Positions 3,845 to 13,719 of a DNA stretch of 35,720 nt are shown here, in pieces. The notes under the pieces were generated by a model, which saw only the letters and a program-made list of their open reading frames with translations, had not been told where the DNA came from and did not search any database. The stretch lies in NCBI RefSeq assembly GCF_006861775.1, contig NZ_VDGG01000026.1, positions 18,766-54,485 on the forward strand, in the 5' to 3' direction. A program made the translations under genes and the position numbers. This stretch comes from Psychrobacillus soli. Its GTDB lineage: Bacteria; Bacillota; Bacilli; Bacillales_A; Planococcaceae. The first letter of the stretch is position 1. The number at the start of each line of letters is the position of its first letter.

Positions 3845-5173
3845 TTAAAAGTCTACATCTTTCGTTTCAGGACCAAGAAGCGCTCCAGCTGTAATACATA
3901 GTCCCCCAATTATTAAAATAACAATAGGCGTATATACATAAGGCATAAAATTCTGTAAGCCTAACATGATAAATGGAGTAAGTGCTGGAATAACTAATGC
4001 AAGACTATACCCAACTCCATAGCCTGAAGCTCTAACACTCGTGTCAAAACGTTCTGTAATATAAGAAGTTAGAACGCCGAACACTGGTATAACGAGTGCG
4101 TGCACAACAATTACAAGAATCATTAATTGCACTGGGTTTTGATAGCCACCCTTTAATAAAAAGAAGTAGATGACTGGTGCTATTGTAAAACTCAAAACAC
4201 CAAATATAGTCAACACTGATTTTCTACCAACTTTTTGACTAACAGCACCAGCTAATATAAAGAGAACGAACAGAACTATATTAGCAAAAAGCTGTGAGTA
4301 AGTAGAAGTTGTACTACTTACATTTAGCATTTTCAACATCCCTGGTAAAGAAGAGATAATGGCATTCGTTACAAACCAAACACCACTCATTAGTAAAAAT
4401 ACTTGTCCAAGTTGTCCAAAATGTTCTTTACTAAATAGTGCTTTTAATGGGTTGGTCGTTTTCTTAGAAGTCTTCCACACTTCCGATTCTGGTAATTCAA
4501 AATAAGAATAAATAAACAGTATTAATGAAAGTAAAGCACCTAATAGAAATGGTATTCTCCATCCCCAAACCGAATATGGAGCAGTAGCATCTCCAGCTGG
4601 CAATAAGCTTAACGTGATTAATGTTGATACGGATACAATAATTGTACCTAATGGGAAACCAGCATTTATAAGTCCCCCAAATAATCCCCTTTTACTTTTC
4701 GGACTCATTTCCATTGCTAGCGGGTTAGCGGACGTATACTCGCCTCCCATAAAGATTCCTGACAAGAACCTTAGAGCTGCAATTGCTATAATTCCTCCCA
4801 GTCCCCAAACACTATAACCAGGTAAAAGTGCTATCATAAAAGTTGTAACGGACAGCCCTAAAATAGCGATCAACGTAGTTTTTCTTCTACCAATTTTATC
4901 CCCAAGAAATCCAAATATGAAGGATCCTATCGGACGCCCAATAAGTGATAATACAAAAATTGTAAAGTATAACGTTGTAGCAATGGTTGGTGAAAGATTT
5001 GCCGGTTGGAAATAAATCATTGCTGGTGCTAATGCAATAATTGGTAAATATACATCGATCATGTCTACCGTGAACCCTAAAAATGCAGTTGTAACAGTCT
5101 TTTTACCATCTTTACTAAGCTTTTCATCACTCGTTTTTTTAGCTGAAACTGGATTACTCATAATTTCTACCAT
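3845..5173 (-). CDS. MFS metabolite:H+ symporter
   Basis: This is a secondary importer of 442 residues with twelve predicted membrane helices. The loop between helices 2 and 3 has the MFS signature GFLGDKIGRRK (about residues 87-97), and the central loop has ELPESEVW, both characteristic of the metabolite:H+ symporter subfamily that takes up organic acids and related solutes. The start is supported by GGGGTG six bases ahead of the ATG. It is the last gene of a minus-strand operon (DUF6282, cupin, HpaI-like aldolase, MFS), so it most likely imports the substrate those enzymes degrade. Its exact substrate is not readable. Confidence 0.87.
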   Translation of the reverse strand: MVEIMSNPVSAKKTSDEKLSKDGKKTVTTAFLGFTVDMIDVYLPIIALAPAMIYFQPANLSPTIATTLYFTIFVLSLIGRPIGSFIFGFLGDKIGRRKTTLIAILGLSVTTFMIALLPGYSVWGLGGIIAIAALRFLSGIFMGGEYTSANPLAMEMSPKSKRGLFGGLINAGFPLGTIIVSVSTLITLSLLPAGDATAPYSVWGWRIPFLLGALLSLILFIYSYFELPESEVWKTSKKTTNPLKALFSKEHFGQLGQVFLLMSGVWFVTNAIISSLPGMLKMLNVSSTTSTYSQLFANIVLFVLFILAGAVSQKVGRKSVLTIFGVLSFTIAPVIYFFLLKGGYQNPVQLMILVIVVHALVIPVFGVLTSYITERFDTSVRASGYGVGYSLALVIPALTPFIMLGLQNFMPYVYTPIVILIIGGLCITAGALLGPETKDVDF

Positions 5174-5206
5174 TTTTACACCCCTTTTTCCCCTTTGAAT
5201 TTTGTT

Positions 5207-5980
5207 CTATTTTACTAGTCGAACGACTGAATCAATCGCTTGTTTAAATAGTGCAACATCTGAAGACCATACAATATATGGAATATCATTTTTAATAGCA
5301 AACTGATACTGCTCTTCATTCGATACGGCAATTCCAGGAATTTTATTGTTTTCCCTACAAGCGTCTACAATTTTCATCACTGGCTCCGCAAGATTTCCAT
5401 CTATATAATTCGCGTCTAATCCTAATGAAACACTTAAATCTAAAGGACCAATAAATACCACATCTAATGCTTCCACTTCGCATATCTGTTCTACATTTTC
5501 AAAAGCACCTACTGTTTCTATATGAACAGCAATGGTAGTCGCCAAATTTTCTTCTTCCAAATAATTAGCTGGTGTGTTTCCGAATTTCGCAGCTCGATGG
5601 GCAAATGTTAGCCCCCTAGAACCTTGCGGATGATATTTTGATTTGTCCACAATTTCCTTTACCTCATCAGCATCCTCGATTTGGGGAACTTGAATACCTG
5701 TTGCTCCTAAGTCCAATGCCCGAAGAATACTACTTCGACTGGAATCAGGAAGGCGAATAATTGTACTCATCTTGTGTAAGTCCGCAACTCTTACCATTTG
5801 TTCCACCTGATGGAACGCAAGTGTCGTATGCTCCATATCAATGATGATAAAATCAAATCCGGCCATCCCTAATAGTTCAATCATTTCCGGAGAATTTATC
5901 TTAACAAATGTCCCTAATTGGGGCCGTCCCTTTTCTAAGCTAGTTTTAAATGATCGTTTTATATTTTCATTAAGCATCAT
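5207..5980 (-). CDS. HpcH/HpaI-family class II pyruvate aldolase
   Basis: This cytosolic metal-dependent aldolase is expected to cleave a 2-keto-4-hydroxy acid into pyruvate and an aldehyde. Family residues are all in place: the base His51 in DMEH, Arg76 in IIRLP, metal ligands Glu155 (HIE) and Asp181 (GPLDLS). These are shifted by a constant +6 relative to the positions I recall for E. coli HpaI. Length (257) is normal. Its start overlaps the end of the cupin gene (ATATGATGCTTAATG), so translation is probably coupled. It lies between cupin and MFS genes in one operon. The substrate is unlikely to be that of true HpaI, because no other homoprotocatechuate genes are nearby. Confidence 0.88.
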   Translation of the reverse strand: MMLNENIKRSFKTSLEKGRPQLGTFVKINSPEMIELLGMAGFDFIIIDMEHTTLAFHQVEQMVRVADLHKMSTIIRLPDSSRSSILRALDLGATGIQVPQIEDADEVKEIVDKSKYHPQGSRGLTFAHRAAKFGNTPANYLEEENLATTIAVHIETVGAFENVEQICEVEALDVVFIGPLDLSVSLGLDANYIDGNLAEPVMKIVDACRENNKIPGIAVSNEEQYQFAIKNDIPYIVWSSDVALFKQAIDSVVRLVK

Positions 5981-6314
5981 ATTCCGCTCTCTTCGGCGTG
6001 AAAATATCTAAATTATAAACAGGCTCATCCCCTACAACTTCTGCATAATGTTCTACATCTGGTGGGACAACCAAAAGACCGCCTTTTTCTAATACGACTA
6101 CTTCCTCACCAACATGGAAATTCACTTTTCCACCTAGTATATAAACAATTTGTTCATATGAATGACTATGTGGTTTTGGTTCATGATCTGGTTGCAAAAC
6201 ATGCAGTGCTAAAGTTGCTCCTTCTCCGCTGAATGCTTTACGTGTTACTCCCTCACGAACTAATACTTCTTCCATCAGGTCCCAGTTATTAGATTTCAAT
6301 TGTAATTTTTCCAT
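5970..6314 (-). CDS. Single-domain cupin protein
   Basis: This is a small beta-barrel metal-binding protein. Cupin motif 1 is visible as HSHSYEQIVYILGG and motif 2 as PPDVEH, giving the usual three-His/one-Glu metal site. I place the start at the ATG at 6314 because GGAGG lies five bases upstream, giving 114 residues, the typical length. The frame extends back to a TTG at 6371 immediately after the DUF6282 stop, but its AAGGA is only about three bases away. It lies between DUF6282 and the aldolase in the same operon, so an isomerase, lactonase or dioxygenase-like step in that pathway is possible. Function is unproven. Confidence 0.85.
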   Translation of the reverse strand: MEKLQLKSNNWDLMEEVLVREGVTRKAFSGEGATLALHVLQPDHEPKPHSHSYEQIVYILGGKVNFHVGEEVVVLEKGGLLVVPPDVEHYAEVVGDEPVYNLDIFTPKRAEYDA

Positions 6315-6371
6315 TTCTTCCTCCATTAATCGTTTTATGGCATCGCTTTCATTTTCATGTTTTATTGACAA

Positions 6372-7262
6372 TTATCCTTCTACTAAAAAGTTTGTGTTTG
6401 TTATTGTCATTGTTTTGATTTCCTCTCTCGAAAATCCATTCGCAAGTAAGTTATTTACAAATGTTAACATGCCCTCATCTGGATATGGATTATTTGTCTG
6501 TCCTAAATCACTTGATAAGAAACAATTTTCAGGTCCTACATACTTAATTGCTTCATACAGTCCTGGCCAATCAATACCATATACTGGGGTAATAACACCA
6601 AAACACTGTTCCATAAACGCACCAAGTTCTGTTAGTTCCTTCTGCTCCTTTTTTGAAAGATTGACAGATGAAAATGTCGGATGCGTTACTACTACTTTTT
6701 TAAGCTGCAGGTCTTTTGCTGCAGTAACTAATGCAAAGATTTCCTGCTTCCCTAAATGTCCCGTAGCTAATATTAAATCGTTTTGTTTTATAATTTCTAA
6801 TACTTCAAAAGTACTTTTAGTTAACTTGCCATCTTCAAGAATGGAAATACCAGCTTGTGTTTTACCTTGTTCTTTTAATTCATGTTGCACTTTTGCCCAA
6901 GGTGGCAGCTCTTCATAACTGCTTTGACTAAATGTGTACTCCAATTCATTTGTTGCATCAAATGTCGGCATCCAAACAATTTTGGCTCCGTCTCTTGCAG
7001 CCATCTCTACGGCAATCGGATTAATACCACCCGATGGATAATTTAAACAAATAGCGCCAATTGGATCGACTGCGGGATATAGTTTCTTCACTAGTCTTGC
7101 TCTCTCCGCTGTACAAAAATAGTGAGATTTAATACCGAACCCTTTCATCCCCATCTGCTGAACACGTTCTGCCATCTCTAAGTCATCAAGCTTTCTTTCA
7201 TTTACATCAGGACCCGTGTGCACATGAAGATCATAAGCACCTTCCAATAAATCTGTATTCAT
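6372..7262 (-). CDS. DUF6282 family metal-dependent hydrolase-like protein
   Basis: I recognise the uncharacterised DUF6282 family. The protein has 296 residues and amidohydrolase/PHP-like metal ligands: HVH (His13, His15), Lys45 and His47 in GIKSHYF, His169 in ATGHLG, His194 in VTHP and Asp252 in SSDLG. This is the pattern of a mono- or dinuclear TIM-barrel hydrolase such as a lactonase or cyclic amidase. It is the first gene of the operon that continues with cupin, HpaI-like aldolase and MFS symporter, and is divergent from a GntR/FCD regulator. I infer that it opens or hydrolyses the pathway substrate. Family call good, reaction unknown. Confidence 0.8.
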   Translation of the reverse strand: MNTDLLEGAYDLHVHTGPDVNERKLDDLEMAERVQQMGMKGFGIKSHYFCTAERARLVKKLYPAVDPIGAICLNYPSGGINPIAVEMAARDGAKIVWMPTFDATNELEYTFSQSSYEELPPWAKVQHELKEQGKTQAGISILEDGKLTKSTFEVLEIIKQNDLILATGHLGKQEIFALVTAAKDLQLKKVVVTHPTFSSVNLSKKEQKELTELGAFMEQCFGVITPVYGIDWPGLYEAIKYVGPENCFLSSDLGQTNNPYPDEGMLTFVNNLLANGFSREEIKTMTITNTNFLVEG

Positions 7263-7511
7263 AAAATCAGCTCCTTTTTATCAAATATAAAAGAGATATA
7301 ATCTTCATCAAATTATATATGATTTATATTAATTTATATATTATTCTAATAGTTCTACTTTTTCAAGCTTTTTTTTAAAAATTTTAAATGAAGTAAATGA
7401 ATGAATATCCTAAACTATTTTTTCCTTAAGTTGTATAAGTATCATATTTGAACTAAAATGATATTTAATTAGAAGAAAATTATATATGTATTACATAAAA
7501 GGAGAGATTCC
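7263..7511. promoter_or_regulatory. Divergent AT-rich promoter region of the DUF6282 operon and its GntR regulator
   Basis: This gap separates the operon start (7262, minus) from the regulator (7512, plus). It is very AT-rich. A TATAAT -10-like box lies at 7312-7317 on the minus strand. TTGTATAAGTATC (7431-7443) resembles half of a GntR-type TTGTATACAAGTAT operator, and a near-palindrome TATGTATTACATA lies close to 7486-7498. None of these is decisive. Confidence 0.4.
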
Positions 7512-8198
7512 ATGGTAAAGAAAATTGATACGCTCGAAGGGAAGACGAAATCTGAAAAAGTATACGAGTTCCTTCGTGCAAAAATACTTGCAGCAGAATA
7601 CAAACCGGGAGACCGTCTCATTATTAGAGAGATAGCAAGACAACTAGAGGTTAGCGACATTCCCGTGCGTGAAGCGATAAAAAAACTAACTGCGGACGGC
7701 TTATTGGAGATTAAATCACATAGCGGGGCTAGAATTGCACCATTTAATATAAAAAATTTAGAAGAAATGTTTCTTATTCGACTTGAGCTCGAACCGTTAG
7801 CCACTCGTTTAGCTGCAAAATCAGCGACAAGTGAAGAAATCATGCTGTTAGAAAATCTTGTTTTAGAGATGGAACAACATCTAAAGAATAATGACATTGA
7901 GGAATATACACATACCAATCGAGCATTTCACAAGCAATTATATCGTTCGTCACACGCACCAGTTTTAATAGAAATCATCGAAAATCTATATCTTAGAAGT
8001 GAAAATTCAAAGTCGATTTTCCAACATGATCCCGATCGATTATTAGCTTCCAATGAAGAGCACTTAGCTATAGTGAACGCATTAAAAAACAAAGACGAAG
8101 AAAACGCCTCTAAATTAATCTATGCACAAAAAGAACATGGGTTTAAAGTCGTACTAAATGCCTTAAAAGTTTCTAGCCAATTTTGGGGCGAAAACTAA
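7512..8198 (+). CDS. GntR-family regulator, FadR subfamily (FCD domain)
   Basis: This DNA-binding repressor of 228 residues has a winged helix (about 12-80: VYEFLRAKILAAEYKPGDRL, then VSDIPVREAIKKLTADGLLE) and an all-helical FCD ligand domain (about 85-215) with His-rich ligand positions (HTNRAFHKQL, EEHLAIVNAL). The start is set by AAGGAG seven to eight bases ahead. It is divergent from the DUF6282 operon, which it probably represses until a carboxylic acid intermediate binds. It is followed at once by a bidirectional terminator. It shares family but little detailed sequence with the second regulator at 13084, suggesting a different inducer. Confidence 0.9.
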   Translation: MVKKIDTLEGKTKSEKVYEFLRAKILAAEYKPGDRLIIREIARQLEVSDIPVREAIKKLTADGLLEIKSHSGARIAPFNIKNLEEMFLIRLELEPLATRLAAKSATSEEIMLLENLVLEMEQHLKNNDIEEYTHTNRAFHKQLYRSSHAPVLIEIIENLYLRSENSKSIFQHDPDRLLASNEEHLAIVNALKNKDEENASKLIYAQKEHGFKVVLNALKVSSQFWGEN

Positions 8199-8262: not shown

Positions 8263-9585
8263 TTAAGAAATAATCATATTAATAAGTAACACGCCTGCTA
8301 GTCCAACTATCGAAAGAATCGTTACCATAACAGACCATGTTTTAATCGTTTGCCCAATAGTAAGATTGAAGTATTCTTTATAAATCCAGAAACCAGCATC
8401 ATTCACATGGGAGAACGTAATACTTCCGGCACCGGCAGCTAATACCATTAGCTCTGGGCTTATACCAGTAATCCCAACTAGAGGTGCTGCAATACCAGCT
8501 GCTGTCATACCAGCTACCGTAGCTGAACCTACAGCTACTCGTAAAATAGCGGCGATTAACCAAGTTAGAAGTAATGGTGAAAGTGTTGAGCTTGCCATAA
8601 TGTCTGCGATATATTGATCAATATGACTGTCGATTAATACTTGTTTAAATGCACCACCGGCAGCGATGATTAATAGAATCATTGCAATTCCACTAACCGC
8701 ATCTGTAACTGATTGCATAACTTCTTTCATTTTTCTACCGCGATTCAAGCCAAACGTAAAGAATGCGAAAATCACAGATAATAATAATGCGACGTTGGCA
8801 TTACCGATAAAATCAAAGAACGGCATAACAGCTGAATTTGGTGCAGCTATCACGACAATTACATGAGAAGCGATTAAGATAACCGGCATTAACGCTGTCA
8901 CAAGACTTGTTGTAAATCCAGGCATTTCTTCATCCGTAAATTCTTTTGGATTAAAAAGTCCTTTTGGAATTTCGATTTCTAAAGATTCCTTCTTGAAAAA
9001 CTTAGTAAATACTGGTCCACCAATAATGATCGCTGGAATCGCAATAATAATTCCATACACTAACGTTTTCCCAATATCTGCATTGAACACACTAGCAATA
9101 GCAGTCGGTCCTGGATGCGGAGGAACAAAACCATGCATCGTAATAAGTGCTGCGATTACCGGCATCCCAATATATAAAACTGGCACTCCAGCTGCAGTAG
9201 CAATTGTAAATACTAAAGGAATTAGTACAACAACTCCTGTTTCAAAAAACAATGCAATCCCAACGACAGATGCTGTCAAAACAGCTGCTAATTGAACTCT
9301 CTTTTTTCCAAACGCATGGATTAGTGTCATCGCAATACGTTGCGCTCCACCCGAGTCTGTCATTAACTTACCAAGGATTGCTCCAAAGATAATAATCATG
9401 GTTAGGCTTCCAAGGGTTCCACCTAAACCACCTTGAACAGATGACATTGCTTCAATTGGTGACATACCTTCTAAAATGCCTACTACAAGAGAAACTAGTA
9501 TAAGCGATATAAAAGCATTTAACTTAAATACAATCATTAATAGAAGTAAAAGTGCTACCCCTATACAAATGGATACTATTGGCAT
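8263..9585 (-). CDS. GntP-family gluconate/sugar-acid:H+ symporter
   Basis: This is a 440-residue membrane importer with about 12-14 hydrophobic helices. Family-typical stretches include GFVPPHPGPTAIA (around residue 150) and, near the C-terminus, SHVNDAGFW, both hallmarks of the gluconate permease family that also takes up threonate, erythronate and glycerate-like acids. GGGG lies ahead of the ATG. It is last in the minus-strand operon ltnD-like, DUF1537 kinase, class II aldolase, gntP-like, the same company kept by E. coli ygbN. It should import the acid sugar those enzymes degrade. A hairpin at 9613-9639 precedes it and could adjust its share of expression. Confidence 0.92.
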   Translation of the reverse strand: MPIVSICIGVALLLLLMIVFKLNAFISLILVSLVVGILEGMSPIEAMSSVQGGLGGTLGSLTMIIIFGAILGKLMTDSGGAQRIAMTLIHAFGKKRVQLAAVLTASVVGIALFFETGVVVLIPLVFTIATAAGVPVLYIGMPVIAALITMHGFVPPHPGPTAIASVFNADIGKTLVYGIIIAIPAIIIGGPVFTKFFKKESLEIEIPKGLFNPKEFTDEEMPGFTTSLVTALMPVILIASHVIVVIAAPNSAVMPFFDFIGNANVALLLSVIFAFFTFGLNRGRKMKEVMQSVTDAVSGIAMILLIIAAGGAFKQVLIDSHIDQYIADIMASSTLSPLLLTWLIAAILRVAVGSATVAGMTAAGIAAPLVGITGISPELMVLAAGAGSITFSHVNDAGFWIYKEYFNLTIGQTIKTWSVMVTILSIVGLAGVLLINMIIS

Positions 9586-9612: not shown

Positions 9613-9639
9613 TTGTCCCCGTGTGTTTCACGGGGACAA
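9613..9639 (-). other. Intercistronic hairpin between aldolase and GntP genes
   Basis: TTGTCCCCGTG (9613-9623) and CACGGGGACAA (9629-9639) form a perfect 11-bp stem with a five-base loop, starting three bases after the aldolase stop. No T-run follows on the minus strand, so it is more likely a processing or stability element, or a weak attenuator, than a full terminator. Confidence 0.65.
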
Positions 9640-9642
9640 TTC

Positions 9643-10479
9643 TTATTTATTTGCATATAAACGTACAAATTTTGTCATAACGGATTCCATTGTTTGTTGC
9701 ATCTCTTCCATAACGATTGAAAGATGAGGCATTTGTTTATTCTCAAAAGCATTTTGTAAATAAGAAACAGCAGCCATGGATACTTCTGTATTGACATTCA
9801 CTTTACAAATACCAAGTTGTACTGCTTGCTGAACGATCGCGTCAGGTGTCCCTGATCCACCATGAAGCACAAGTGGTACATCAACAGCTTGCTCTATTCT
9901 TTCTAAAAGAGGTAAATCAATTTTAGGCTCGCCTTTATACATGCCGTGTACTGTTCCGATAGCAGCTGCCAAAAAGTCGACACCTGTTTGTGCAACAAAA
10001 TTCTTCGCAGATTCTGGATCTGTTAAAGTGCCATCTCCTTCTTCTTCATCGGAGAAATCTCCTTTTGCCAAAGAACCAATTTCTGCTTCTACAGATACAC
10101 CAGCCATATGCGCTATTTCTACAATTTCTTTCGTTCGACGAATATTTTCTTCTATTTCATAGGCAGACCCGTCAAACATAACAGATGTAAATCCAGAGCG
10201 GATCGCACGAATAATCGATTCTTTTTCATATGCATGATCTAGATGAAGAGCAATAGGAACCGGAGACTTCTCTGCGATTGCTTTTACAAGTGCAGCAAAA
10301 CCTTCTACATCCACTGTTGGAAAATAGCGTTCTCCTAATGCGATAATTACTGGTTGGTTTTCTCGTTCCGCCACACGAATGGCCGCTTGAACTGTTTCCA
10401 AACTGTATACGTTAAATGCTGCGACCGCATATTTACCGGCTTGCGCATTTGTTAATATTTCTTTTGTATTTACTAACAT
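9643..10479 (-). CDS. Class II (zinc) ketose-bisphosphate aldolase family protein
   Basis: This cytosolic TIM-barrel aldolase has 278 residues. The zinc and catalytic residues of the fructose/tagatose-bisphosphate aldolase family are present: Asp81-His82 in LHLDH, Glu133 in EAEIG, His178 in GTVHG and His206 in LHGGSG; NVNT (228-231) would bind the phosphate. It resembles the GatY/KbaY/FbaA branch. It sits 19 bases after the DUF1537 kinase gene. From this context I infer that it cleaves the phosphorylated 3-oxo-acid made by its neighbours, releasing a triose phosphate, rather than serving glycolysis. Ribosome site GGGAGAG is well placed. Family certain, substrate inferred. Confidence 0.9.
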   Translation of the reverse strand: MLVNTKEILTNAQAGKYAVAAFNVYSLETVQAAIRVAERENQPVIIALGERYFPTVDVEGFAALVKAIAEKSPVPIALHLDHAYEKESIIRAIRSGFTSVMFDGSAYEIEENIRRTKEIVEIAHMAGVSVEAEIGSLAKGDFSDEEEGDGTLTDPESAKNFVAQTGVDFLAAAIGTVHGMYKGEPKIDLPLLERIEQAVDVPLVLHGGSGTPDAIVQQAVQLGICKVNVNTEVSMAAVSYLQNAFENKQMPHLSIVMEEMQQTMESVMTKFVRLYANK

Positions 10480-10498
10480 GTAAGTCTCTCCCTGCTAA

Positions 10499-11944
10499 TT
10501 ACTTATTTAAGATTTCCACAGTATCTTTTAAGGTTGTAACTGCACCTACGTTACCTGGGAAAATAATGTACGCGATTCCAGGAAACTTACTTTCTTCCCC
10601 TGTATACCAGACAGGAATTCCAGGTTGAATTTGACCAGCTACCGTTGCACGTTTTACTTCTAGCCCTTTAGTTCCGATATCACTAGATGTGATGCCGCCT
10701 TTTGCAACAATATAATTTGGACGCACAGTTAGTCGCCCGACGATACTTGTAACTGCATCGGAGATTTTAACCGATAGTTTTAACTCTTCTTCATTTTTAC
10801 CTTCACCTAGATCGAGTCTTTCCCGATTTGTGTAAACAGTAACGGTTTTACCACTCTGAATTAAATCTTCCGTAGTTGAAATCACTCGATCTATTTCTAC
10901 TTGGAATTTTTCAGGTTGTAATACAAGATGCGTATTAAATTCAATGAATTCGATGAAATCACTTGTTTTCAATACTTCTAGCTGCTCCGTCGTTTTTTTA
11001 ACATGCGATCCAACTAGGATTAAACCACCATGATTCGTTTCTTCTTGAATTAACTCTTCTCTTGTTAAAAGTGCTTTATCACTTACTCCGCCAATTACTT
11101 TTGTCAGCGCAGCTGCACTTCGGAACATAAATTGTTTCCCAGATTTCATTGCTTTAGCAAGCGCAATGACAAAGATTTCTACATCGACATAATCGACTGC
11201 ATTCACAACTACTTTGTTGAAATCTGTTACTTGAAGCAATTGATTTGTAATTCCTTCTATATCAAGTGAGCGTAAGCTCTCCAGTGAAATATATGTAGCG
11301 TTTTCTGCTGTAAATCTTCCATCTGATTTTTCTTCTACATATTCACCTAAATGTGATTTTGTATAACCAAATGTTCTGTCTTTCGCAAATTCAGTCTCTC
11401 CAGCAGGTACTAAATACTCTTCGTATTGTACATAGTGGATATTATCCACTGTGAAGCGACCGCCTTCTTTGAAAAATGGAATAATTACTTCGCCGTCATA
11501 TTGAAGGTCCGAATGTCCTTCGATTGTATCTTTTAACACTTCTGTTTCCAGTGGGTAATGACCTCTTAAGGTAGAATCTCCACGACTAATGACAATAAAT
11601 TCTTTGTTTTGTTTTTTCGCCACTTCTGCAATATTAGTTGCAATATCTATATGTGCTTTTTTTGTTTCTGCAGCAGTAAATCCTCGAGAATTAGTCAGTA
11701 TAAAAAACATCGAATTTTCTTCTTGGAACCCTTTTTCGATACTATCTACTGACCAGTCTGTGTATACGGAAACACCATGTACTGTTTGAACACCTGTTGG
11801 ATCATCATCCAGCACGATGATTTTTTTATTTAAACTAGCTAATTCTTTTTCCAGCATATCTTTTACAGTTTGTGTATCTACTACCTGGATATTTCCTAAA
11901 ACTTCCTCAGCTAATCGCTTTTCTGTACTATTTATTGTCGTCAT
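10499..11944 (-). CDS. Four-carbon acid sugar kinase (DUF1537, OtnK-like)
   Basis: This is an ATP-dependent kinase of 481 residues in the family shown to phosphorylate 3-oxo-tetronates and D-threonate at C4. The substrate domain carries the diagnostic DDDPTG (46-51) followed by QT and later TLRGHYP; the C-terminal nucleotide domain has KGGITSSDIG and FPGNVG. Its ATG lies three bases after the dehydrogenase stop, with the ribosome site GGGAGAG inside that gene's last codons, so the two are translationally coupled. In known pathways the partner dehydrogenase (LtnD) oxidises L-threonate or D-erythronate first. The exact acid used here is unknown because the usual OtnC/OtnI partners are missing. 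Confidence 0.9.
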   Translation of the reverse strand: MTTINSTEKRLAEEVLGNIQVVDTQTVKDMLEKELASLNKKIIVLDDDPTGVQTVHGVSVYTDWSVDSIEKGFQEENSMFFILTNSRGFTAAETKKAHIDIATNIAEVAKKQNKEFIVISRGDSTLRGHYPLETEVLKDTIEGHSDLQYDGEVIIPFFKEGGRFTVDNIHYVQYEEYLVPAGETEFAKDRTFGYTKSHLGEYVEEKSDGRFTAENATYISLESLRSLDIEGITNQLLQVTDFNKVVVNAVDYVDVEIFVIALAKAMKSGKQFMFRSAAALTKVIGGVSDKALLTREELIQEETNHGGLILVGSHVKKTTEQLEVLKTSDFIEFIEFNTHLVLQPEKFQVEIDRVISTTEDLIQSGKTVTVYTNRERLDLGEGKNEEELKLSVKISDAVTSIVGRLTVRPNYIVAKGGITSSDIGTKGLEVKRATVAGQIQPGIPVWYTGEESKFPGIAYIIFPGNVGAVTTLKDTVEILNK

Positions 11945-11947
11945 GGC

Positions 11948-12841
11948 TTAAACTCTCCCAACTTCAACATTTGCAAGTTTTTCAAAGTATTGAACAATAC
12001 CACCGTGATCATCTGCCGCTTTCCCATCTACTTTTAATGCGTGGAAAATTTCTAAAAGTTGGCTAGATAATGGCATTGGTACACCAATACTATGCGCTGT
12101 ATCCATTACGTTTGTTATATCTTTTAAGTTAATATCAATTCTTCCACCAGCTACAAAATTACGATCTAAGATTAAAGGAACTTTCGCATCTAGTACGGCA
12201 CTTCCTGCAAGTCCACCGCGAATTGCTTGATACATTTTTTCCACATCGATACCAGCTTTTGCAGCTAATACTAATGCTTCTGACATAGCAGCGATATTTA
12301 AGTTGACGATTACTTGGTTAGCTAACTTCGCAGTAGTTCCGCTTCCATTTGCCCCAACTAACGTCACTTCTGCACCTACTGCATAAAGTACATCTTTCAC
12401 TTGTTCAAATACTTCTTCTTTACCACCGACCATGATCGCAAGCGTACCATCTATCGCTTTTGGCTCTCCACCACTAACAGGAGCATCAAGCATTTCTACT
12501 CCTTGTTTTTCAGCAGTCGCTGCAAGTTCTTTTGAAACAACTGGTGTAATCGAGCTCATATCGATAATGACTGCACCTTTTTTCGCTCCGCTAAGTACGC
12601 CATTCTCGCCTAGTACAACTTGTTGCACATGATGAGAAGCAGGAAGCATTGTAATAATTACGTCACTGTTTTCACCGATTATTTTTGCAGAATCGCCAGC
12701 TATTGCACCAGCATCTATTAAAGATTGAACTGCCTCTTTATTAAGGTCGTTCACCATTACTTCGTACCCTTTAGCTAGTAAATTCAATGCCATAGGTTTG
12801 CCCATAATTCCTAAACCGATAAAACCAATTTTTTTAGACAT
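11948..12841 (-). CDS. NAD(P)-dependent 3-hydroxyacid dehydrogenase (LtnD/GarR-like)
   Basis: This oxidoreductase of 297 residues belongs to the beta-hydroxyacid dehydrogenase family. The Rossmann motif GFIGLGIMGKPMA lies at 6-18, the substrate loop DAPVSGG at 119-125, and the catalytic Lys172 in AKLANQ. Family members include tartronate-semialdehyde reductase, 3-hydroxyisobutyrate dehydrogenase and the tetronate dehydrogenases LtnD/DenD. Being the first gene ahead of a DUF1537 kinase points to a 2-hydroxyl or 3-hydroxyl oxidation of an aldonate. GGAGG lies seven bases ahead of the ATG. The 242-bp upstream region shared with the GntR gene holds a cre site and three operator-like boxes. Confidence 0.9.
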   Translation of the reverse strand: MSKKIGFIGLGIMGKPMALNLLAKGYEVMVNDLNKEAVQSLIDAGAIAGDSAKIIGENSDVIITMLPASHHVQQVVLGENGVLSGAKKGAVIIDMSSITPVVSKELAATAEKQGVEMLDAPVSGGEPKAIDGTLAIMVGGKEEVFEQVKDVLYAVGAEVTLVGANGSGTTAKLANQVIVNLNIAAMSEALVLAAKAGIDVEKMYQAIRGGLAGSAVLDAKVPLILDRNFVAGGRIDINLKDITNVMDTAHSIGVPMPLSSQLLEIFHALKVDGKAADDHGGIVQYFEKLANVEVGRV

Positions 12842-12910: not shown

Positions 12911-12924
12911 TGAAACCGTTTACA
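12911..12924. promoter_or_regulatory. Catabolite-responsive element (cre) for CcpA
   Basis: TGAAACCGTTTACA matches the cre consensus TGWAANCGNTNWCA at every defined position. It lies about 70 bases upstream of the LtnD-like start, downstream of or overlapping the likely operon promoter, a position where CcpA usually represses. It implies that the acid-sugar operon is shut down when preferred sugars are present. Confidence 0.75.
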
Positions 12925-12943: not shown

Positions 12944-12995
12944 TTGTATACTTTTTTTATTATTTTGTACACAATTTTATTTGTTTCGTACACAA
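12944..12995. promoter_or_regulatory. Three operator-like boxes for the FadR-type GntR regulator, 21-bp phased
   Basis: TTGTATACTT (12944-12953), TTGTACACAA (12965-12974) and TCGTACACAA (12986-12995) repeat the theme TTGTAYACAA, the core I associate with GntR-family operators. Box starts are 21 bases apart twice, two turns of B-DNA, so bound dimers would face the same side. They lie between the divergent regulator and dehydrogenase genes and overlap candidate promoter elements on the minus strand. Confidence 0.65.
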
Positions 12996-13083
12996 AATAA
13001 ACACTTTTTTGATTTAGGCTTCCTTTCCCTTATTTTTTTTGATAAATTTGATAGTAATGAGATAGAAAATTGGAGTGAAAGCA

Positions 13084-13719
13084 ATGATTCAGAACGATAA
13101 AAATTCTCGCTCTGCTTCCAAACAAGCATATGAAGTGATTCGTGATCGAATTTTGAACGGAGATATGCCAGGTGGCACAAAAATTGTGGAAGAAAAATTG
13201 GCCACTGATTTAGGATTTAGCCGTACTCCTATTAGAGAATCACTGCGCCAATTAAGTCATGAAGGGCTTATCGTCAATAAAAAAGTGGTACAACCTACAG
13301 AAAAAGATCTTCGCAACTTATTTCAAGTTAGAAGTTTACTAGAGGGGTTCTCAGCGAAAGCAGCAGCAACCTATTTGCCCGAAGAAGATTTAAATGCTCT
13401 TTCTAATTGCATCAAAGTAGGAAGAGAAGGAAAAGTAGAAGAAATAATGGATGCAAATGAACGATTTCACGAAATTATCGTGCAAGCTAGCGGGAACGCT
13501 CTGATGATAGACACAATCGATCGTATGAAACCCATCATCTATCTGTTTCGCAAAACCGTAGTACTATACAATCGCCCTCGATTAATAGATGAGCATGAGG
13601 AAATTTATGAAGCGATAAAAGCAAGAGATGGTGAAACGGCGAAGAAGCTAATGGAAGACCATCTGAAAGAGGACTTGGATTTTTGCTTACAAATTTTAAA
13701 TAGTTCCAGAAACGAATAA
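13084..13719 (+). CDS. GntR-family regulator, FadR subfamily (FCD domain)
   Basis: This repressor of 211 residues has a winged helix (about 10-75: AYEVIRDRILNGDMPGGTKI, then FSRTPIRESLRQLSHEGLI) and a helical FCD domain (about 80-205) with the ligand/metal His pattern (NERFHEIIV, DEHEEIYEAI, MEDHLKED). The ATG at 13084 is preferred over the in-frame GTG at 13075 because TGGAG sits at proper spacing before it. It is divergent from the LtnD-like/DUF1537/aldolase/GntP operon, its probable target, and likely senses a pathway acid. It ends in a bidirectional terminator. Confidence 0.9.
   Translation: MIQNDKNSRSASKQAYEVIRDRILNGDMPGGTKIVEEKLATDLGFSRTPIRESLRQLSHEGLIVNKKVVQPTEKDLRNLFQVRSLLEGFSAKAAATYLPEEDLNALSNCIKVGREGKVEEIMDANERFHEIIVQASGNALMIDTIDRMKPIIYLFRKTVVLYNRPRLIDEHEEIYEAIKARDGETAKKLMEDHLKEDLDFCLQILNSSRNE

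What the first reader, a model, noticed from the sequence alone, without database searches (positions are those of the whole stretch)
9643..12841. Acid-sugar operon with class II bisphosphate aldolase in place of OtnC and OtnI
The characterised tetronate pathways pair LtnD/DenD and the DUF1537 kinase OtnK with OtnC (decarboxylating, AraD-like) and OtnI. Here neither is present; a zinc ketose-bisphosphate aldolase follows the kinase instead. From memory, plants have a large fused protein (Arabidopsis At1g18270) with dehydrogenase, DUF1537 and class II aldolase domains in this same order. The operon would thus be the unfused version of that chain: oxidation, phosphorylation, aldol cleavage of a longer or different aldonate.
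Basis: partly seen in the sequence, partly recalled or inferred. Interest (0 to 1): 0.7.

Follow-up and report, generated by a model that had tools for sequence, protein, structure and literature searches.

The report
Sugar-acid operon with optional aldolase
A Psychrobacillus-like bacterium carries a small operon that probably breaks down a sugar acid into a glycolysis intermediate; it is a variant of a recently published pathway, with a different dehydrogenase and an aldolase that many relatives lack.

Summary
The genes are as described: minus strand, tightly packed, with a GntP permease downstream and a divergent GntR regulator. No OtnI hit in the genome; the only OtnC relative is MtnB. But the first gene is not LtnD/DenD: it passes both GarR (tartronate semialdehyde reductase) models and fails LtnD. 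DUF1537 kinase plus class II aldolase is already published as a three-step L-threonate pathway (Guo et al. 2024, seen only through PMC12540250), and the plant fusion At1g18270 is needed for L-threonate metabolism. New here: in Bacillota the conserved core is GarR-type dehydrogenase + kinase + GntP, fused once; the aldolase is an accessory, with 15 presence changes on one kinase tree and no close orthologue elsewhere in 41 of 42 operon genomes lacking it. Best reading: a C4 aldonate is oxidised and phosphorylated and loses CO2 to give DHAP, the aldolase helping. Main rival: a 5-keto-hexonate phosphate is cleaved to DHAP plus tartronate semialdehyde, which the GarR-type enzyme reduces. Substrate undetermined.

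The parts
11948..12841 (-). GarR-type beta-hydroxyacid dehydrogenase (tartronate semialdehyde reductase subfamily), 297 aa
   Evidence: NCBIfam NF008592 465.5>397 and TIGR01505 369.8>340.75; LtnD NF043037 199.3<350; best PDB 1vpd E 1e-105
10499..11944 (-). DUF1537 family kinase, 481 aa, of the LDDDPTG / DSTLRGHYPLE subgroup that also holds the Arthrobacter, Rhodococcus and Deinococcus kinases found near class II aldolases
   Evidence: Pfam SBD_N + NBD_C; model pLDDT 88, only DUF1537 structures match at E<=0.001; 34% to Arthrobacter, 20-22% to YgbK and the own D-threonate-type kinase
9643..10479 (-). class II (F_bP_aldolase) aldolase, 278 aa, keeping the family's conserved LDH, GTVHG, LHGGSG and NVNTE segments (their roles recalled); accessory part
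   Evidence: Pfam E 7e-94; below every equivalog cutoff listed, above the cutoff of one broad subfamily, TIGR00167; alignment
8263..9585 (-). GntP-family permease, nearest to NF011560 (a gluconate transporter model; GntT by recalled gene name)
   Evidence: Pfam E 3e-158; NF011560 595.7 (cutoff 744), TIGR00791 549.4 (cutoff 292.75)
13075..13719 (+). divergent GntR/FCD regulator
   Evidence: Pfam GntR + FCD; similar regulator beside the dehydrogenase in most of the loci listed
12944..12995 (-). three TTGTATACAA-like repeats 21 bp apart (12995-12986, 12974-12965, 12953-12944; 2, 1 and 2 mismatches): candidate operator of the GntR/FCD regulator
   Evidence: TTGTATACAA with at most 1 mismatch upstream of the dehydrogenase in 50 of 58 order loci and 48 of 75 named-genome loci, against 31 of 1160 random pieces
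12911..12924 (-). TGTAAACGGTTTCA, cre-like catabolite-repression site (consensus recalled)
   Evidence: strict pattern upstream in 9 of 58 order loci and 7 of 75 named-genome loci, 8 of 1160 random pieces
9613..9639 (.). 11-pair perfect hairpin between aldolase and permease (possible attenuator or processing signal)
   Evidence: the region had 4 terminator-like sites against 2.8 expected, so not significant as a count; sequence

Best explanation
A catabolite-repressed, GntR-controlled operon for an external four-carbon aldonic acid, most likely one with R configuration at C2 (L-threonate and/or D-erythronate). The GntP permease takes it up. The GarR-type dehydrogenase oxidises the carbon next to C2 (the beta position, as GarR does with glycerate/tartronate semialdehyde), and the DUF1537 kinase phosphorylates the terminal CH2OH; which comes first is not shown. 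The resulting keto-acid phosphate loses CO2 to give DHAP. The class II aldolase, whose normal product is the DHAP enediolate, speeds that last step with CO2 in place of an aldehyde; operons without it rely on spontaneous beta-keto-acid decarboxylation or another enzyme. Shown: gene content, families, conservation, absence of the aldolase from many operons, conserved operator-like and cre-like sites. Inferred: substrate, order of steps, decarboxylation, regulation.
For: Core of dehydrogenase + kinase + GntP in 58 of 58 order loci; an aldolase within 6 kb in 36 of 58 (35 of 37 when kinase identity is >=66%; below that 1 of 21, L052, whose 43% hit belongs to an inositol-type cluster). In named genomes 78 of 80 loci were scored: DH 73, GntP 68, ALD 40 by a loose 6 kb rule. 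No close aldolase orthologue elsewhere: 22 of 23 aldolase-less order genomes have none at E<=1e-60; 19 of 19 named ones show only 36-46% relatives. 12 of 23 have one F_bP_aldolase gene and 10 of 19 one relative at E<=1e-30. Presence changes 15 times on the kinase tree (10 forced by well-supported branches), so the core seems to work either way, which fits a product that can break down without a dedicated lyase. DH-KIN gap <=10 nt or overlapping in 116 of 132 pairs, fused once: suggests consecutive steps. Loci near other C4-acid-sugar genes: D-threonate-kinase-like (272.5, cutoff 450) + PdxA (548, cutoff 470) in L073; OtnK-like (323, cutoff 350) + OtnC-like (169, cutoff 250) in L097, the same by similarity in L098 of the same species; an OtnK-like gene (266) in L132. 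The own genome has a separate DUF1537 + PdxA-like + GntP-like cluster. The same kinase subgroup and an aldolase occur in an Arthrobacter locus whose permease passes NF007332 (669 against 524) and whose dehydrogenase scores best with the LtnD model, below its cutoff: the gene set of the published three-step pathway. D-glycerate, L-threonate and D-erythronate share 2R (recalled).
Against: The dehydrogenase is a GarR, 56% to GarR and 42% to GlxR, both tartronate semialdehyde reductases by annotation, and only 30-32% to LtnD-type enzymes, so its natural substrate may really be tartronate semialdehyde. The window permease is nearest a gluconate transporter model, not the YgbN-type one. The window aldolase is 30% identical to the Arthrobacter one and does not group with it. 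Clostridial operon aldolases are themselves only 38-47% identical to the window's, so in the 11 of 23 and 9 of 19 aldolase-less genomes with further class II aldolases an unlinked substitute is not excluded. Glycerate kinase genes lie in the fetched stretch of 2 of 136 scored loci (L040, L123) and of one distant one (L155). No substrate was tested.
Confidence: 0.45

Rival explanations
1. A hexonate route built like myo-inositol catabolism (IolC/IolJ, recalled): the kinase phosphorylates C6 of a 5-keto-hexonate (5-ketogluconate, fructuronate or tagaturonate type), the class II aldolase splits it into DHAP and tartronate semialdehyde, and the GarR-type enzyme reduces the latter to D-glycerate, which an unlinked glycerate kinase uses. 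The dehydrogenase would be the last step, not the first.
For: Dehydrogenase passes both GarR models (relatives); permease is nearest a gluconate transporter model; aldolase keeps the family's conserved segments; glycerate kinase in 57 of 58 operon genomes against 173 of 203 others (my count from its list), next to the regulator in L040 and near in L123; one aldolase-less operon (L052) lies beside an inositol-type cluster with IolD (960.6, cutoff 715) and an aldolase passing NF005288 (459.8, cutoff 396).
Against: The aldolase would be essential, yet is missing from about half of the operons, and 12 of 23 and 10 of 19 such genomes have only one class II aldolase; dehydrogenase and kinase would not be consecutive although coupled and once fused; glycerate kinase is near universal in the order (230 of 261), so its presence says little.
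Confidence: 0.27
2. The three-step L-threonate pathway exactly as published: the dehydrogenase makes 2-oxo-L-threonate, the kinase is 2-OtnK and the aldolase 2-OtnC.
For: Same enzyme classes and kinase subgroup; same set in an Arthrobacter plasmid locus.
Against: LtnD model not met, 199 against cutoff 350; permease not YgbN-type; aldolase 30% identical to the Arthrobacter one and in another group; aldolase absent from many operons.
Confidence: 0.13
3. The aldolase is an ordinary fructose/tagatose-bisphosphate aldolase that merely sits in the operon.
For: Repeatedly gained or lost; in G112 it is the only F_bP_aldolase hit of the genome.
Against: The own genome has another class II aldolase that passes the fructose-bisphosphate models; the operon enzyme falls below the fructose- and tagatose-bisphosphate equivalog cutoffs; other class II aldolases (38-47% identity) hold the same slot in Clostridia and Negativicutes.
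Confidence: 0.07

Closest known systems
Three-step L-threonate pathway (LtnD, 2-OtnK, 2-OtnC; Guo et al. 2024, known here only through PMC12540250)
   Same: beta-hydroxyacid dehydrogenase, DUF1537 kinase, class II aldolase, no OtnI
   Different: GarR-type instead of LtnD-type dehydrogenase; gluconate-type instead of YgbN-type permease (compared with the Arthrobacter StoSoilB13 locus, not with ZBG10); aldolase of another group and missing in many relatives
Plant LTD protein (At1g18270)
   Same: order dehydrogenase - DUF1537 - class II aldolase
   Different: fused, with two dehydrogenase units; no plant sequence was held here, so no alignment was made
E. coli ygbJKLM (annotated LtnD, OtnK, OtnC, OtnI)
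   Same: dehydrogenase superfamily, DUF1537 kinase, GntP-family permease
   Different: kinase 20% identical, dehydrogenase 32%; no OtnC, no OtnI
E. coli garPLRK
   Same: dehydrogenase 56% identical to GarR
   Different: no GarL, no glycerate kinase and no GarP in the operon
myo-inositol IolC/IolJ (recalled)
   Same: kinase plus class II aldolase giving DHAP and a semialdehyde acid would be the same logic as the hexonate rival
   Different: kinase of another family (recalled); the window aldolase fails NF005288, the model that the L052 inositol-cluster aldolase passes

Membership tests
GarR tartronate semialdehyde reductase (NCBIfam equivalogs NF008592, TIGR01505) | score above curated cutoffs | tested here: met
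   465.5>397 and 369.8>340.75
GarR tartronate semialdehyde reductase (NCBIfam equivalogs NF008592, TIGR01505) | reduces tartronate semialdehyde | not testable with these tools
   needs enzyme assay; PMC12506659 (passages) lists E. coli LtnD as mispredicted to be this enzyme
DUF1537 kinase family | SBD_N + NBD_C domains and fold | tested here: met
Three-step L-threonate pathway | LtnD-type dehydrogenase | tested here: not met
   199.3 against cutoff 350; tree
Three-step L-threonate pathway | DUF1537 kinase of the 2-OtnK kind | tested here: inconclusive
Three-step L-threonate pathway | F_bP_aldolase-type 2-OtnC, no OtnI | tested here: met
   by domain and absence only
Three-step L-threonate pathway | L-threonate to DHAP | not testable with these tools
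   no assay
Four-step OtnI/OtnC tetronate pathway | OtnC and OtnI present | tested here: not met
Plant LTD architecture | dehydrogenase - DUF1537 - class II aldolase order | tested here: met
   window order against the description in PMC12540250
Plant LTD architecture | sequence relationship to the plant domains | not tested
   no plant sequence in the collections used

The most novel reading that the evidence does not exclude
An undescribed pathway: a 5-keto-hexonate is phosphorylated by a DUF1537 kinase and cut by a class II aldolase into DHAP and tartronate semialdehyde, which the co-encoded GarR-type enzyme reduces to glycerate; or, equally new, a two-enzyme core (GarR-type dehydrogenase + DUF1537 kinase, even fused) that alone turns a tetronate into DHAP by a 6-phosphogluconate-dehydrogenase-like oxidation and CO2 loss, the aldolase being a repeatedly recruited helper.
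Probability: 0.4. Interest if true: 0.6.

Novelty: new variant of a known kind. Interest (0 to 1): 0.4.

Why it matters
The module is annotated piecemeal where annotation was seen here (garR, 'four-carbon acid sugar kinase family protein', 'gluconate:H+ symporter' on a Ligilactobacillus and a Priestia plasmid), and my searches found no assigned substrate. Settling it would name the substrate of a DUF1537 subgroup whose domain set is shared with a land-plant protein of ascorbate breakdown, and would show whether the class II aldolase acts as decarboxylase or lyase. The optional aldolase and the dehydrogenase-kinase fusion make the question directly testable.

Tried and rejected
Glycerate kinase co-occurrence as a test of the hexonate route: uninformative, because the gene is near universal. 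Neighbour genes as a clue to the substrate: in the stretch of up to five ORFs before and six after the kinase the recurrent clusters were ABC-transporter ATPases, RpiR-type regulators, a HAD phosphatase (five loci), DeoR-type regulators and clusters shared by close kin; no recurrent sugar-acid enzyme (identities partly recalled, RpiR and HAD checked). Sequence search of solved structures with the kinase: nothing relevant; fold search finds only DUF1537 structures at 14-17% identity, and no coordinates were available, so no pocket comparison. DUF1537 as the glycerate kinase of the operon: considered, judged unlikely because glycerate kinases are present anyway (inference). The HpcH/HpaI operon next door: beside this operon in the window and in L100/L170 (one strain) and, as a different HpcH/HpaI gene, in the distant L154; taken as separate.

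Literature: ten searches listed no paper that by title or abstract start describes this gene set; PMC5470051 (wheat aldolases, holding DUF1537 and 3-hydroxyisobutyrate dehydrogenase) was seen as a listing only. Guo et al. 2024 and Zhang et al. 2016 were not held. Of PMC4921024, PMC10971088 and PMC12506659 only passages were seen.

Limits: neighbour genes were called by a greedy longest-ORF script, poor in high-GC loci (L135 was re-read). The ALD count of 40 is by best BLAST match within 6 kb and may include aldolases not of the operon (L112 has one on the other strand). ALD labels use a stricter identity and distance rule; six contig-edge rows were set aside. L126 and L131 gave no kinase ORF and were dropped. 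Eighteen identical kinase rows were dropped (136 to 118). The kinase tree is a quick one; the dehydrogenase and aldolase trees carry long-branch warnings.
Full report
Observation. The window (Psychrobacillus-like: the nearest named relatives of the kinase are in Psychrobacillus) holds on its minus strand a dehydrogenase (12841-11948), a DUF1537 kinase (11944-10499), a class II aldolase (10479-9643) and a GntP permease (9585-8263), gaps 3, 19 and 57 nt, with a divergent GntR/FCD regulator at 13075-13719. The name of the first gene is not: it passes two curated GarR models and fails the LtnD model, and its best solved relative is 1vpd, a tartronate semialdehyde reductase.

What the literature already has. 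PMC12540250 (abstract, introduction, one results section, discussion and passages seen) reports that Guo et al. 2024 described a three-step L-threonate pathway with LtnD, a DUF1537 2-OtnK and a 2-OtnC that has an F_bP_aldolase domain, from Arthrobacter sp. ZBG10, without OtnI, and that Arabidopsis LTD (At1g18270), with the fused domains, is needed for L-threonate metabolism. So the kinase/class II aldolase pairing and its link to the plant protein are in print. I could not read Guo et al. itself.

How this operon differs. An Arthrobacter plasmid locus (L135) has a regulator, kinase, dehydrogenase, GntP and aldolase. Its dehydrogenase scores best with the LtnD model, though below the cutoff (245 against 350), and groups with E. 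coli LtnD (100/99, long branches); its permease passes NF007332 (669 against 524), the YgbN type (recalled). The window dehydrogenase is 56% identical to E. coli GarR, 42% to GlxR, 32% to LtnD and 30% to the Arthrobacter enzyme; the window kinase is 34% and the aldolase 30% identical to the Arthrobacter ones. The window permease is nearest a gluconate transporter model.

Conservation. The kinase occurs in 58 of 261 genomes of the order. All 58 loci have a dehydrogenase of this family and a GntP permease within 6 kb; 36 have an aldolase hit, of which the one in L052 belongs to an inositol-type cluster. In a phylum sample 12 of 398 genomes match the kinase profile at E<=1e-30, the own genome among them. 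In 80 named-genome loci, 78 scored, the counts are DH 73, GntP 68, ALD 40. Permease and regulator types vary (GntR/FCD or RpiR) while dehydrogenase and kinase stay. Of the relatives' dehydrogenases scanned, L045, L066, L132 and the L119 fusion pass both GarR models and L128 passes one. In distant kinase loci the GarR-type gene is absent: of 17 further loci only 7 have a dehydrogenase of this family within 6 kb.

The aldolase is an accessory. On a quick tree of 118 distinct kinases (58 with, 60 without aldolase) presence changes at least 17 times, 10 forced by well-supported branches, and 15 times when six contig-edge rows are left out. In aldolase-less operon genomes no close orthologue is found elsewhere in 22 of 23 order genomes (E<=1e-60; G197 has one about 40 kb away) or in 19 of 19 named ones (only 36-46% relatives). 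12 of 23 have a single F_bP_aldolase gene and 10 of 19 a single relative at E<=1e-30; in the rest an unlinked substitute is not excluded, because operon aldolases of Clostridia and Negativicutes are themselves only 38-47% identical to the window's. The aldolase therefore seems to help the pathway but not to define it.

Coupling of dehydrogenase and kinase. Of 132 pairs, 116 are overlapping or within 10 nt, 3 within 60, 12 further apart, and one is a single 776-residue protein in Shouchella shacheensis. This favours consecutive steps.

Regulation. TTGTATACAA (at most one mismatch) lies upstream of the dehydrogenase in 50 of 58 order loci, 48 of 75 named loci and 31 of 1160 random pieces; the window has three copies with one or two mismatches at exact 21 bp steps, plus a cre-like site. 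The strict cre pattern is found in a minority (9 of 58, 7 of 75; 8 of 1160 random). This is what a substrate-induced, catabolite-repressed carbon-source operon should look like (inference).

Mechanism. The chemistry below is established knowledge or inference, not a tool result. Class II aldolases make the DHAP enediolate. With a C4 keto-acid phosphate the leaving group would be CO2, with C5 glyoxylate, with C6 tartronate semialdehyde. GarR works at the beta carbon of a 2R hydroxy acid; L-threonate and D-erythronate are 2R. Oxidation at C3 and phosphorylation at C4 would give a beta-keto acid that can lose CO2 unaided, which would explain why the aldolase can be missing. The C6 version explains the GarR identity best but needs a lyase that many genomes seem not to have. 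Association evidence leans to C4: loci near a D-threonate-kinase-like gene + PdxA (L073), OtnK-like + OtnC-like genes (L097, L098) and an OtnK-like gene (L132), the kinase and OtnC matches all below their cutoffs. Against it, glycerate kinase sits next to the regulator in L040 and near the operon in L123, the L052 operon lies beside an inositol-type cluster, and the more distant kinase subgroup has D-2-hydroxyacid dehydrogenases and once a glycerate kinase as neighbours. I put 0.45 on C4, 0.27 on C6, 0.13 on the published route unchanged.

Caution on names. PMC12506659 (passages) lists E. coli LtnD as wrongly predicted to be 2-hydroxy-3-oxopropionate reductase, so a GarR label in this superfamily is not proof of substrate; here, however, the protein is far nearer GarR than LtnD.

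Structure. The kinase model (mean pLDDT 88.1, pTM 0.87) matches only DUF1537 structures at E<=0.001 (7 chains, 14-17% identity; the 3dqq chains carry another title in the list, and their DUF1537 identity is recalled). The second-look aligner was not available.

Noticed in passing
window 3845-8198: Separate operon with its own GntR/FCD regulator: MFS transporter, HpcH/HpaI-type aldolase, cupin and DUF6282 protein; seen beside the kinase operon also in L100/L170 (Psychrobacillus sp. OK032).
   Followed up: partly
L119 7080-9410: Shouchella shacheensis has the GarR-type dehydrogenase and the DUF1537 kinase fused in one 776-residue protein; only one aldolase relative (43%) was found in its genome.
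   Followed up: yes
L003 7622-12148: The own genome has a second DUF1537 kinase with PdxA-like dehydrogenase, GntP-like permease and DeoR-like regulator (names from sequence look, no family scan), a D-threonate-type cluster.
   Followed up: partly
L152 2443-8601: A distant kinase relative lies with a beta-keto acid cleavage enzyme (BKACE), an Asp/Glu racemase-family protein and a probable TRAP transporter.
   Followed up: partly
L155 5566-9395, L157 3504-9756, L153 3855-6500: Distant kinase relatives sit beside D-2-hydroxyacid dehydrogenases, in L155 also a glycerate kinase (54% to GarK); function of that subgroup is unclear.
   Followed up: partly
L136 5272-9243, L137 4854-7859, L128 6442-10239: An Asp/Glu racemase-family protein recurs beside the kinase and class II aldolase in Deinococcus, Rhodococcus and Youngiibacter.
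   Followed up: no
G112 (L041 7513-8349): The operon aldolase is the only F_bP_aldolase hit in this genome, so it may also serve glycolysis there or another kind of enzyme does.
   Followed up: no
L052 92-6739: A dehydrogenase-kinase-GntP operon without its own aldolase lies beside an inositol-type cluster (IolD, IolB-like, MMSDH and a class II aldolase passing NF005288).
   Followed up: partly
window 9613-9639: Perfect 11-pair hairpin in the aldolase-permease gap.
   Followed up: no
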